In this document: in pieces, positions 7,015 to 10,886 of the stretch
Position numbering within the stretch: the first letter of the stretch is position 1
Layout: each line of letters starts with the position of its first letter
DNA from: Acidimicrobiia bacterium
GTDB taxonomy: Bacteria > Actinomycetota > Acidimicrobiia > Acidimicrobiales > AC-14
DNA length: 43,215 bases
Direction of reading: 5' to 3'
NCBI GenBank assembly: GCA_023265025.1
Contig: JAHFUP010000038.1
Span: forward strand, 1 to 43,215
Made by a program: the position numbers and the translations under genes
The notes under the pieces: generated by a model
What the model was told of the DNA's origin: nothing
The model's input: only the letters and a program-made list of their open reading frames with translations
The model's database searches: none

Positions 7015-7782
7015 CTACCGAGTGAGCGCGGCCAGCACCTCGTCGTGGAGGAGGCCGTTGGTGGACACCGCGCTGCCGCCGTCGGGCCGGGCGACGCCCG
7101 ACAGGTCGGTGAAGCGCCCGCCGGCCTCCTCGACGATGACCTGGACGGCGGCGACGTCCCAGACCGACACCTCGGGCTCGACGGCGACGTCGACCGCCCC
7201 TTCGGCGACGAGCACGTGCGACCAGAAGTCGCCCAGGCCCCGCGTGCGCCAACAGCGGCGGGCCAGGGCCATGAAGTGCTCCCCCAGCCCGAAGGGCTCC
7301 CAGCCCTGCACGCTGTCGTAGCTGAGCAGGGCGTCGGCCACGTCGGCCACCGCGGAGACATGGATGAGCCCGTCAGCGGTGCACGCGCCCTGGCCGCGCG
7401 CCGCCCACCAGCGCCGGCCCAGGGCCGGCGCCGACACCACTCCCACGGTCACCTCGTCGTCGTGGCGGAGGGCGATGCAGGTCGCCCACACCGGGATGCC
7501 CCGGACGTAGTTCTTGGTGCCGTCGATCGGGTCGAGGATCCAGTGCCACCCCGACCCGCCGGGCTGGGCCCCGAACTCCTCGCCCACGACGCCGTGCTCC
7601 GGCCGGGCCCCGGCGATCGCGGCCCGCAGGGCCTGTTCGACGGCCCGGTCGGCGTCGGTGACCGGGGTCAGGTCGGGCTTGGTGGACACGACGAGGTCGG
7701 ACCGCCGGAAGCGGGCCAGGGTCAGGACGTCGGCCATGTCGGCCAACTCGAGGGCGAGGTCGAGGTCGGAGATGGGGCTCAG
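7015..7782 (-). CDS. hisN: Histidinol-phosphatase / inositol-monophosphatase family
   Basis: Mg-dependent phosphatase of the IMPase superfamily, most likely the actinobacterial HisN that dephosphorylates histidinol phosphate in histidine synthesis. Motifs: VGEEFG, WILDPIDGTKNYVRG (metal site), and WDVAAVQ near the end. About 255 aa. The N-terminus LDLALELADMADVLTLARFR is the expected beginning of the family. No ATG, GTG or TTG precedes it; the only candidate in register is CTG at 7782-7780, which overlaps the upstream stop as CTGA. Fallbacks are TTG at 7746 or ATG at 7737, both of which remove part of the first helix. An inositol-1-phosphatase role cannot be excluded. Confidence 0.88.
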   Translation of the reverse strand: MSPISDLDLALELADMADVLTLARFRRSDLVVSTKPDLTPVTDADRAVEQALRAAIAGARPEHGVVGEEFGAQPGGSGWHWILDPIDGTKNYVRGIPVWATCIALRHDDEVTVGVVSAPALGRRWWAARGQGACTADGLIHVSAVADVADALLSYDSVQGWEPFGLGEHFMALARRCWRTRGLGDFWSHVLVAEGAVDVAVEPEVSVWDVAAVQVIVEEAGGRFTDLSGVARPDGGSAVSTNGLLHDEVLAALTR

Positions 7783-8264
7783 GCGGGCTTGCGCCGGCCA
7801 TGGGCCGGCCGGACGGCGTCGGCCTCCGGCTTGGAGAAGCGCAGGGGCAGCGGCTCGACGCCCTCCTCCACCGGCGGGATGCTCTGCGACGGCGGCTCCA
7901 GGCCGTACTTCACCAGCAGGTTCAGGTAGTCGCGCTGGTACAGGACGCGGATGTTGACCTCCGGGTACAGCTCCTTCAGCCGGCGGGCCTTGCGGTTCTT
8001 CTTGGTCACCAGCTTCTGGTTCATCGTGGTGATCTCGATGAACAGGTCGTACGCCGGCAGGTAGAAGTCGGGCGTGAAAGCCTGGGCCGAGTGGCCCTCG
8101 TTGTCCCACTCGAGCACGAACGTACGCGGCTCGTAGTGCCAGACGATGCCGTAGAAGTCGAGCAGCTTGGCGAACTGAAGCTCGGAATTGTGGGCGAAGC
8201 GGACTCCGGCGTGGGGCAGCGGGAGGTCGTCCGGCGCCGGGGCGGAGTCGCGCAGCTCGCTCAG
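7779..8264 (-). CDS. Conserved actinobacterial protein of unknown function (TPDFYLP motif)
   Basis: About 161 aa; function unknown. The centre has the pattern KLLDFYGIVWHYEP, then EW, then FTPDFYLPAYDLFIEIT with VTKKNRKARRLKELYP. This alternation of acidic and basic residues (E...PDFYLP...E.T..K) resembles small restriction-like nuclease folds, but I would not assign activity from that. The conserved part begins well before the first GTG (8120). The reading frame is open from a stop just upstream, and the only fitting start is CTG at 8264, which has a perfect GGAGGGGG ribosome binding site 9 nt before it (8281-8274). It overlaps hisN by four bases and follows merR by five. Confidence 0.8.
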   Translation of the reverse strand: MSELRDSAPAPDDLPLPHAGVRFAHNSELQFAKLLDFYGIVWHYEPRTFVLEWDNEGHSAQAFTPDFYLPAYDLFIEITTMNQKLVTKKNRKARRLKELYPEVNIRVLYQRDYLNLLVKYGLEPPSQSIPPVEEGVEPLPLRFSKPEADAVRPAHGRRKPA

Positions 8265-8269
8265 GACGA

Positions 8270-8752
8270 CTAGCCCCCTCCGCCGGCGGCGCTACGCGAA
8301 GGGTGGGTGGACCCGACGGGCTGCGCCCGGGGCATGTCGGTGATCGCGGCGTCGAGCTCGTCCTTGACCCCGCCCAGGGCGACGATCGACAGGACTCCCT
8401 GGCCCCGACGGATCAGATCGACCAGTTCGCCGTCGGTGCGGACCAGCACCGAGCCGGCCCCGTTGATGACCAGGCTGGCGGTGGCGATGTCCTCCCCCAG
8501 GTGGTCGCGCAGGTACTCGATGGCCTTGCGGGCCGACTGCAGGGAAACGCCGGCGTCCAGGAGCCCCTTGATGACCTTCAGCTCGACCAGATCCCGGTAG
8601 GAATAGCGACGCTGCGTCCCCGAGCCGCGCGCATCGGCGATCGAGGGCCGGATGAGATCGGTACGGGCCCAGTAGTCCAGCTGCCGGTAGGTAATGCCAA
8701 CGATCTTGCAGACCTGCGGCCCCCGAAACCCGACCAGATCGTCCTCGCCCAT
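8270..8752 (-). CDS. MerR-family transcriptional regulator (Rv1830-like)
   Basis: 160 aa with an N-terminal winged-helix domain (VCKIVGITYRQLDYWARTDLI, about residues 14-34, then RRYSYRDLVELKVIKGLL). This is the hallmark of the MerR protein encoded next to the bifunctional nuclease in mycobacteria (Rv1830). The C-terminal half has the segment SLVINGAGSVLVRTDGELVDL and no Cys metal site, so it is not a metal sensor. ATG at 8752 follows AAAAGGGG. The short C-terminal tail (SAAGGGG) ends next to the ribosome binding site of the downstream gene. Likely role: regulation of growth or cell-division genes together with FtsR; inferred from synteny. Confidence 0.88.
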   Translation of the reverse strand: MGEDDLVGFRGPQVCKIVGITYRQLDYWARTDLIRPSIADARGSGTQRRYSYRDLVELKVIKGLLDAGVSLQSARKAIEYLRDHLGEDIATASLVINGAGSVLVRTDGELVDLIRRGQGVLSIVALGGVKDELDAAITDMPRAQPVGSTHPSRSAAGGGG

Positions 8753-10834: not shown

Positions 10835-10886
10835 CCCGCTGAGCGGGGCTCTGTTTTCATTGGTTCGCTCACTGTCGTTCGCTCAC
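10835..10886 (-). repeat. garA-ftsR gap: small hairpin and GTGAGCGAAC direct repeat
   Basis: Hairpin 10835-10847 (CCCGC-TGA-GCGGG). Direct repeats on the minus strand, GTGAGCGAAC, at 10886-10877 and 10872-10863 with a 14-bp period; the first covers the garA stop codon. The GAGCGA core is also present several times in the hhyS-hhyL gap (1521-1590), which suggests a dispersed repeat family. Confidence 0.5.

What the first reader, a model, noticed from the sequence alone, without database searches (positions are those of the whole stretch)
7779..8281. CTG start with a perfect Shine-Dalgarno in the TPDFYLP gene
The conserved domain starts far upstream of the first GTG (8120). The frame is closed by a stop shortly before, and no ATG, GTG or TTG lies between. 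CTG 8264 has GGAGGGGG at an ideal 9-nt spacing. This is the cleanest case of several here (7782, 9929, 26681, 31425) and suggests that CUG initiation is common in this lineage and missed by gene finders.
Basis: partly seen in the sequence, partly recalled or inferred. Interest (0 to 1): 0.75.

Follow-up and report, generated by a model that had tools for sequence, protein, structure and literature searches.

The report
Class-wide nuclease-like gene starting at CUG
A small nuclease-like gene in a large group of mostly uncultured bacteria appears to begin at CUG (or AUC) instead of a normal start codon in more than half of the families examined, which suggests that cells keep its production low on purpose and that gene finders clip the protein.

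Summary
The TPDFYLP gene (minus strand) has an in-frame TAG at 8294, no ATG/GTG/TTG before GTG 8117, and GTG 8117 lies 27 codons inside the conserved domain. CTG 8264 follows GGAGGGGG.

Orthologues make it stronger. In 89 of 184 distinct loci (mostly the window's class, Acidimicrobiia by record titles) no ATG/GTG/TTG lies within 45 codons upstream of the conserved core; neighbouring genes give 0/168, 0/128, 1/137, 0/51, 2/38. The first NTG/ATN codon from the upstream stop on is CTG in 100/184 and ATC/ATA/ATT in 26. Of 96 CTG loci with the upstream MerR-type gene adjacent, 73 overlap its stop as CTGA and 23 lie 4-8 nt after it. A Shine-Dalgarno 4-mer precedes 73/100 of these CTGs, against 27/418 internal ones. 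All three relative frames occur, so it is not a frameshift fusion.

Best reading: a conserved, deliberately weak, coupled start for a PD-(D/E)XK-like protein, of the infC/pcnB/sigR/ccpN kind. Control by IF3 is inferred.

"CUG is common" is only partly supported: the genus has two or three more good cases, neighbours across the class almost none, and site 9929 fails.

The parts
7779..8264 (-). TPDFYLP gene, read from CTG 8264 to stop TGA 7781-7779; 161 residues, PD-(D/E)XK-like
8262..8264 (-). CTG start codon; unchanged in the two congeneric species; an in-frame CTG lies 4 to 8 nt from the upstream stop in 7 of 7 family-f1 loci tested besides the window
8274..8281 (-). Shine-Dalgarno-like GGAGGGGG, unchanged in the two congeners
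8292..8294 (-). in-frame TAG that closes the TPDFYLP frame upstream
8270..8752 (-). upstream MerR-type regulator gene (MerR1; PF13411), stop TAG 8272-8270; the TPDFYLP CTG starts 8 nt after the first base of this stop
8115..8117 (-). first canonical codon in frame (GTG), 27 codons inside the conserved domain; a gene finder limited to ATG/GTG/TTG would start here
7015..7782 (-). downstream inositol-phosphatase/HisN-like gene (PF00459); possible CTG start 7782 overlapping the TPDFYLP stop as CTGA

Best explanation
The TPDFYLP gene is translated from CTG 8264, and its family has kept a weak non-canonical start (CTG, in one group ATC, rarely ATA or ATT) across much of class Acidimicrobiia. The codon sits on, or within a few nt after, the stop of the co-directional MerR1 gene and behind a Shine-Dalgarno sequence. 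Ribosomes that finish MerR1, helped by the SD, start TPDFYLP at low efficiency, so this PD-(D/E)XK-like protein is made in much smaller amounts than MerR1 and its yield depends on initiation fidelity, that is on IF3. Shown by sequence: the start must be non-canonical in many species; the site is position-specific, SD-linked, independent of relative frame, and richer in C than the upstream gene's wobble composition predicts. Inferred: coupling, low yield, IF3 sensitivity, and selection for low dosage of a nuclease-like protein. I put about 0.9 on the non-canonical start and about 0.5 on the regulated low-dosage mechanism.
For: Loci with no ATG/GTG/TTG within 45 codons upstream of the conserved anchor: 89/184 distinct TPDFYLP loci, against 0/168 MerR1, 0/128 BFN, 1/137 GcvT, 0/51 GcvPA and 2/38 Hpt in the same loci. 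Strict set: 53/184 are closed by an in-frame stop within 60 codons with no canonical codon before the anchor, the next one lying 10-63 codons inside the domain. First NTG/ATN codon: CTG 100, ATC 20, ATA 5, ATT 1, canonical 53, none 5, of 184. SD 4-mer at 4-12 nt: 73/100 CTG and 19/26 ATH starts, against 27/418 internal in-frame CTGs. CTG offset from the MerR1 stop: -1 in 73 and +4 to +8 in 23 of 96. At 100 NTGA overlaps the base is C 73, G 12, T 8, A 7, against 44.6, 32.7, 11.5 and 11.2 expected from MerR1 third positions. The last MerR1 codon in the 73 CTGA loci has ten forms for nine residues, so the C rather than the residue is kept. Family f1: CTG at +4 to +8 in 7/7, in three relative frames. 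One locus per genus: CTG 47, ATH 10, canonical only 16, none 13, of 86. Of 44 coded families, 24 are mostly non-canonical in the loci seen, many with one locus. Positive control: infC has ATA/ATC at its conserved start in 30/30 fetched relatives and ATA in 3/3 congeners. Precedents: PMC5472188, PMC13009471 (passages).
Against: No protein, ribosome-profiling or mutant data exist. 53 of 184 loci have a canonical first codon, and the tree needs at least 27 canonical/non-canonical changes over 178 labelled loci, so the trait is not fixed: f23 (7 of 7) and f50 (4 of 4) are canonical throughout, f37, f68 and f75 too (2 of 2 each). The strict set touches only 7 of the 44 coded families (21 of its 53 loci bear a code). 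In GC3 > 0.9 genomes the CTGA excess vanishes (C 9 observed, 12.1 expected, of 22), and below 0.6 only 1 of 7 is C. 5 of 92 MerR1 third-position columns are as C-rich. Two of the seven f1 loci (L012, L016) also have GTG or TTG at the overlap, before their CTG. Loci are not independent. In mycobacteria CTG was not enriched as a leadered start (0.03%, PMC4633059). Excess IF3 inhibited re-initiation less when an SD was present (PMC2268962). Non-canonical starts at other genes of this genus allow a simpler relaxed-initiation reading. IF3 control was not tested.
Confidence: 0.6

Rival explanations
1. Relaxed initiation and drift: start discrimination in this lineage is loose, CUG works well enough, and no regulation is involved.
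For: In the window's genus the FAD gene has CTG where relatives have GTG, BTAD alternates CTG/ATG between species, HisN has CTG where several relatives have GTG, and Hpt and a YgfZ-like gene lack clear canonical starts. IF3 of all 3 congeners carries N where 30 of 30 other relatives' IF3s examined carry D (5 further matches were not read), next to the Tyr of the motif NYGK (DYGK-type in others).
Against: The TPDFYLP pattern spans the class, including genomes whose IF3 has the D, while neighbouring genes in the same loci keep canonical starts (3/522 without). Canonical codons at the overlap are rarer than wobble composition alone predicts. The initiator tRNA found has normal GGGCTCATAACCC pairs.
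Confidence: 0.3
2. A -1 frameshift (or stop readthrough) joins MerR1 and TPDFYLP into one protein, so no separate start is needed.
For: In 118 of 173 loci TPDFYLP lies in the -1 frame relative to the MerR1 stop, and SD-like sequences can stimulate frameshifting (recalled).
Against: 30 and 25 loci lie in the other two frames. Within family f1 all three frames occur with CTG always 4-8 nt from the stop. The sequence before the stop varies between loci.
Confidence: 0.04
3. Translation starts at another codon: GTG 8117, a GTC at 8270 or 8267 (sigR-like), or a canonical codon far upstream.
For: GTC is a proven start in Streptomyces sigR (PMC5472188), and the two GTCs here have shorter spacing from GGAGG (6 and 9 nt).
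Against: GTG 8117 would remove 12 of 34 invariant columns. The GTCs are ACC/GCC in one congener and GTC/GCC in the other, while CTG is unchanged. TAG 8294 closes the frame.
Confidence: 0.05
4. Assembly or base-calling error created an apparent lack of a start.
For: Most of the named records are metagenome assemblies.
Against: The same arrangement recurs in dozens of assemblies, including contigs of 1.7 and 2.2 Mb (L166, L190), and neighbouring genes read normally.
Confidence: 0.01

Closest known systems
infC (IF3) with AUU/AUC/AUA start; pcnB with AUU start
   Same: Conserved non-canonical start behind an SD that keeps yield low and exposes the gene to IF3. Here infC has ATA/ATC at its conserved start in 30 of 30 fetched relatives.
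   Different: TPDFYLP is not a translation factor, mostly uses CUG, and sits on or next to the stop of the gene before it. infC facts come from passages of PMC5472188 and PMC13009471; pcnB from a reference title seen in PMC13009471.
Streptomyces sigR, GTC start repressed by IF3 (PMC5472188)
   Same: Actinobacterial gene with a conserved non-canonical start missed by annotation; canonical replacements overproduce the protein; IF3 level matters.
   Different: sigR is a sigma factor with GTC in 32 and GTT in 2 of 34 Streptomyces; here the codons are CTG/ATC across a class, next to MerR1, with no experiment.
Staphylococcus/Bacillus ccpN (AUA) and staphylococcal cvfC1 (AUU) (PMC13009471)
   Same: Conserved non-canonical starts with strong SDs; reporters give about 10-30% of AUG yield.
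   Different: AUA/AUU rather than CUG/AUC; no stop-start overlap is described in the passages I saw.
RTGA/NTGA coupling tetramers (termination-reinitiation)
   Same: Four-base overlap of stop and start plus SD, as described for mycobacterial gene junctions (PMC4633059 passages).
   Different: That paper speaks of RTGA (ATGA/GTGA); here CTGA dominates (73 of 100 NTGA overlaps).
PD-(D/E)XK nucleases: T7-type endonuclease I, TnsA, Vsr, Bax1, VRR-NUC
   Same: Fold and the acidic residues of the core; profile hit to endonuclease I 3cae (E 8e-5); TnsA Z 7.3, Vsr Z 6.4.
   Different: The lysine of E-x-K (recalled) is Thr (E-I/V-T-T); the nearest invariant Lys is 7 residues after the Glu. Below Pfam's cut-off for PF05367 (19.6 vs 29.1 bits). 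Z values under 8 can reflect a common arrangement only (note).

Membership tests
Genes limited by a conserved non-canonical start codon (infC/pcnB/sigR/ccpN kind) | No ATG/GTG/TTG available at the start of the conserved protein | tested here: met
   89/184 loci within 45 codons; strict 53/184; controls 3/522. Met in these loci, not in all members
Genes limited by a conserved non-canonical start codon (infC/pcnB/sigR/ccpN kind) | Non-canonical codon conserved among orthologues behind an SD | tested here: met
   CTG in 100 and ATH in 26 of 184; SD 73/100 and 19/26 against 27/418 in control
Genes limited by a conserved non-canonical start codon (infC/pcnB/sigR/ccpN kind) | Change to ATG raises yield; IF3 level alters yield | not testable with these tools
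   needs reporters or infC alleles
Termination-reinitiation coupled gene pairs | Downstream start on or next to the upstream stop | tested here: met
   CTG at -1 (73) or +4 to +8 (23) from the MerR1 stop in 96 of 96 CTG loci with a MerR1 stop within 150 nt of the anchor
Termination-reinitiation coupled gene pairs | Downstream translation depends on upstream translation | not testable with these tools
   needs a stop mutation in MerR1
Programmed frameshift fusions | Constant relative frame between the two ORFs | tested here: not met
   118/30/25 loci in the three frames
PD-(D/E)XK superfamily | alpha-beta core with conserved acidic residues | tested here: met
   mean pLDDT 79.8, 73 of 161 residues at 90 or more; E28, D66, E77 invariant in 38 sequences; many of the structural matches are PD-(D/E)XK proteins (recalled classification), none at Foldseek E <= 0.001
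Phage endonuclease I, PF05367 | Score over Pfam's gathering cut-off | tested here: not met
   19.6 vs 29.1 bits; 5 of 38 members hit at E <= 0.1
Phage endonuclease I, PF05367 | E-x-K catalytic lysine (recalled) | tested here: not met
   E77-I/V78-T79-T80; K84 invariant instead

The most novel reading that the evidence does not exclude
A class-wide, start-codon-gated nuclease: Acidimicrobiia keep this gene on CUG/AUC so that its output follows IF3 or ribosome status, and in the window's own genus a changed IF3 (conserved Asp to Asn in the N-domain) has loosened start selection, letting further genes move from GUG/AUG to CUG.
Probability: 0.15. Interest if true: 0.85.

Novelty: new variant of a known kind. 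Interest (0 to 1): 0.64.

Why it matters
The papers I saw describe conserved non-canonical starts for only a handful of bacterial genes. Here one is kept, mostly as CUG, in more than half of 44 coded families (24 mostly non-canonical, many seen through one locus), which makes its regulation directly testable and suggests that start-codon identity can be under selection to stay weak. A gene finder limited to ATG/GTG/TTG would clip 49 residues from this protein in the window. The genus-level spread of CUG starts together with an unusual IF3 residue gives a concrete hypothesis about how initiation fidelity evolves.

Tried and rejected
Rfam scan of the window: nothing at gathering thresholds. Frameshift fusion: rejected on relative frames. 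Unusual initiator tRNA: the single exact match to the pattern is a normal tRNA-Met with 3 GC pairs. Genome-wide CTG excess: none seen, but the same test does not show GTG either (11.3 vs 10.9 per spacing; ATG 6.5 vs 2.4; CTG 9.8 vs 11.0), so it is weak. The ORF-level test was weak too: 43 of 237 gene-like ORFs had no canonical codon in the first 60 codons after the stop. NCBIfam: no family for TPDFYLP. PADLOC: weak hits, E 9e-4 and 1.5e-3. Site 9929: CTC in both congeners, rejected as a CTG start.

Limits of counts: the 184 distinct loci are those left after removing 34 duplicates and 3 unusable ones; they pool two collections and include some relatives outside the class (Solincola, Geothermincola and others). 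Unusable control loci: MerR1 5, BFN 35, GcvT 1, GcvPA 2, Hpt 95. Only 23 of 184 TPDFYLP loci have a canonical codon with an SD in the 45 codons, and the 53 'canonical first codon' loci have an SD 4-mer in only 12, so some canonical labels may be chance codons. For one search I chose 30 of the genomes with weaker hits; searches took 60 places, mostly one per genus, from the listing, which was itself cut. In one search AGC and ACC rank with CTG in enrichment near the stop; they are the codon after CTGA, whose first A is fixed by TGA. infC: an ATA/ATC codon sits at the conserved place in 30 of 30 loci; in 4 (L271, L273, L274, L275) a canonical codon also lies in the open frame shown. 38 infC matches exist, 30 were fetched, 3 more read, 5 not read. 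In one search one further IF3 column differs (I vs L in 29 of 30). Literature listings were partly cut (for example 25 of 45 papers, 12 of 133).
Full report
WHAT IS THERE. The finding lies on the minus strand of contig G000:C160. The nearest named record is an uncultured Acidimicrobiales MAG (88% protein identity); I call the class Acidimicrobiia from such titles, because the genomes themselves carry codes only. Reading order: bifunctional-nuclease-domain gene (BFN), a MerR-type regulator (MerR1, 8270-8752), the TPDFYLP gene, then an inositol-phosphatase/HisN-like gene. The TPDFYLP frame opens after TAG 8294-8292 and ends at TGA 7781-7779. Its first ATG/GTG/TTG is GTG 8117. CTG 8264 follows GGAGGGGG (8281-8274) by 9 nt; the GGAGG core ends 12 nt before it.

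IS THE REGION BEFORE GTG 8117 PART OF THE PROTEIN? Yes. In an alignment of 38 sequences, 12 of 34 invariant columns lie before GTG 8117. In the two congeneric species CTG is unchanged, the two GTC codons just before it are not both kept in either, and the GGAGGGGGCTA block is unchanged.

HOW GENERAL IS THE MISSING START? I collected orthologues from 41 genomes of the neighbourhood (23 with a match), the GTDB-220 contigs (79 loci), 395 genomes of the class, of which 241 have a match (30 loci returned), 60 further regions and 30 chosen genomes with weaker hits. With one procedure for all genes, 89 of 184 distinct TPDFYLP loci have no ATG/GTG/TTG within 45 codons upstream of the conserved anchor. 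The same procedure on neighbours in the same loci gives 0/168 (MerR1), 0/128 (BFN), 1/137 (GcvT), 0/51 (GcvPA) and 2/38 (Hpt, both in the window's genus). In 53 of 184 loci an in-frame stop within 60 codons closes the frame and no canonical codon precedes the anchor; the next one lies 10-63 codons inside the domain. These strict loci fall in 7 of the 44 coded families (21 of the 53 bear a code). In them a non-canonical start is forced unless the protein is a fusion.

WHICH CODON? From the MerR1 stop onward, the first NTG or ATN codon is CTG in 100, GTG 25, ATC 20, ATG 15, TTG 13, ATA 5, ATT 1 and none in 5 of 184 loci. Where MerR1 adjoins, such CTGs lie at only two kinds of place: overlapping its stop as CTGA (73) or 4-8 nt after the first base of the stop (23). 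A subgroup (families f56, f57, f60) has ATC shortly after the stop instead (15 of 20 ATC cases at +2 to +7). An SD 4-mer lies 4-12 nt upstream of 73 of 100 CTG starts and 19 of 26 ATH starts, against 27 of 418 internal in-frame CTGs and 12 of 53 loci labelled canonical. With one locus per genus, CTG is found at -1 to +8 in 47 of 86 genera (13.2 expected from gene-body codon use); 10 have an ATH codon, 16 a canonical codon only and 13 none. In the window's family the CTG is at +4 to +8 in 7 of 7 loci tested, in all three frames relative to MerR1; two of them also have GTG or TTG at the overlap. Among 44 coded families, 29 have at least one non-canonical case and 24 are mostly non-canonical, many through a single locus. 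Families f23 (7 loci) and f50 (4) are canonical throughout.

IS IT SELECTION OR COMPOSITION? At CTGA the C is the wobble base of the last MerR1 codon, and C-to-T there is always synonymous and would create TTG. In 100 NTGA overlaps C occurs 73 times (44.6 expected from MerR1 third positions), G 12 (32.7), T 8 (11.5) and A 7 (11.2). The excess is strong at GC3 0.6-0.9 (C 63 of 71) and absent above 0.9 (9 of 22, 12.1 expected) and below 0.6 (1 of 7). The last MerR1 residue varies (nine residues in the 73 CTGA loci), so the base and not the residue is kept; 5 of 92 MerR1 third-position columns are at least as C-rich. Loci are related, so these numbers are not probabilities; a tree needs at least 27 switches between canonical and non-canonical over 178 labelled loci.

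ALTERNATIVES. A frameshift fusion is excluded as a general account because TPDFYLP occurs in all three frames relative to MerR1 (118, 30 and 25 of 173). A relaxed initiator tRNA is not supported: the single match to the initiator anticodon-stem pattern is a normal tRNA-Met. As a positive control, infC, a documented non-canonical gene, has ATA or ATC at its conserved start in 30 of 30 fetched relatives, 4 of which also have a canonical codon in the open frame, and ATA in the three congeners, so the method finds real cases.

IS CUG COMMON IN THE LINEAGE? Mixed. In the genus, 26681 (FAD gene) is CTG in 3 of 3 species, and GTG in the four relatives at 63-68% identity that could be read (L397, L398, L399, L401; L400 could not); 31425 (BTAD) is CTG in two species and ATG in the third; 7782 (HisN) is CTG in 3 of 3 with GTG in several relatives, though TTG/ATG codons follow downstream; 9929 is CTC in both congeners. 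Of 100 genes with clear coding-type divergence from a congener, 16 had no canonical codon in the narrow window tested; by eye these include TPDFYLP, FAD, BTAD, Hpt and a YgfZ-like gene, the rest being explained by canonical codons just outside, cut genes or doubtful frames. Against this stand the clean neighbours across the class. An SD-based test in 360 kb shows no CTG excess, but it does not show GTG either, so it has little power. A survey of 36 genome triplets found 1 GUG-to-CUG switch in 5,080 and 2 AUG-to-CUG in 61,358 (PMC5622118, passage), so even two or three such genes in one 43-kb window are unusual. IF3 of all three congeners has Asn where 30 of 30 other relatives' IF3s examined have Asp; the two solved bacterial IF3s whose alignments were shown (5lmn, 5me0) have Asp there too. 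That is a correlation in one lineage, not a cause.

WHAT THE PROTEIN IS. The model (mean pLDDT 79.8, 73 of 161 residues at 90 or more) has a PD-(D/E)XK-like arrangement. A family profile hits phage endonuclease I (3cae, E 8e-5). Foldseek and VIA-align list Vsr, TnsA, Bax1, VRR-NUC and mitoribosomal chains among others (best Z 8.4, no Foldseek E under 0.001, so the match is suggestive). E28, D66 and E77 are invariant, but E-x-K reads E-I/V-T, so activity is uncertain. It is not a member of PF05367 by Pfam's cut-off.

MECHANISM. Most likely, ribosomes ending MerR1 start TPDFYLP inefficiently at the adjacent CTG/ATC with help from the SD, keeping a nuclease-like protein scarce and tying its output to initiation fidelity. 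The position and codon are shown; the coupling, low yield and IF3 control are inferred from sigR (PMC5472188: outline, passages and section 10), ccpN/cvfC1 (PMC13009471, passages) and re-initiation work in which excess IF3 reduced re-initiation, less so with an SD (PMC2268962, passages). In mycobacteria CTG was not enriched as a leadered start in a selection (0.03%; PMC4633059, passages), consistent with a very weak codon. A structural study (PMC11497404, passages) describes weak pairing of CUG with a variant initiator tRNA.

NOVELTY. Nine full-text searches showed, in the rows listed, no paper on a conserved CUG start for this gene or in Acidimicrobiia; only open-licence papers are held and several listings were cut. 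The kind (conserved weak start) is known; the CTGA-coupled, CUG/AUC-swapping, class-wide case is, as far as these searches show, a new variant.

Noticed in passing
window 26681 (+): FAD-dependent oxidoreductase-like gene: CTG conserved in 3 of 3 congeners with no clear SD; first canonical codon is 26789, inside the conserved domain; four readable relatives outside the genus have GTG at this place.
   Followed up: partly
window 31425 (-): BTAD-type regulator: CTG here and in one congener, ATG in the other, a likely recent AUG/CUG switch.
   Followed up: partly
window 7782 (-): HisN-like gene: CTG overlapping the TPDFYLP stop (CTGA) in 3 of 3 congeners; several relatives have GTG.
   Followed up: partly
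window 9947-9927 (-): Hpt-like gene has no canonical codon at its conserved N-terminus; CTG 9929 is not conserved; ATA overlapping the upstream TAG is possible, and the congeners differ.
   Followed up: partly
L451, L452, L453 (infC region of the genus): IF3 carries Asn at a position that is Asp in 30 of 30 other relatives' IF3s examined and in the two solved IF3s shown; possible link to looser start choice.
   Followed up: partly
L437, frame opening at 10841 (-): YgfZ-like gene (named from recall) whose frame has no canonical codon until well inside the protein; CTG codons lie at different places in the two species.
   Followed up: no
L109, L111, L112, L123, L128, L132, L134: Subgroup of TPDFYLP loci with ATC, not CTG, shortly after the MerR1 stop.
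   Followed up: partly
L222, L223, L224, L226 (family f50, genomes of about 1 Mb): TPDFYLP starts with ATG overlapping the MerR1 stop (ATGA), right at the conserved core: canonical ATG in 4 of 4 loci.
   Followed up: no
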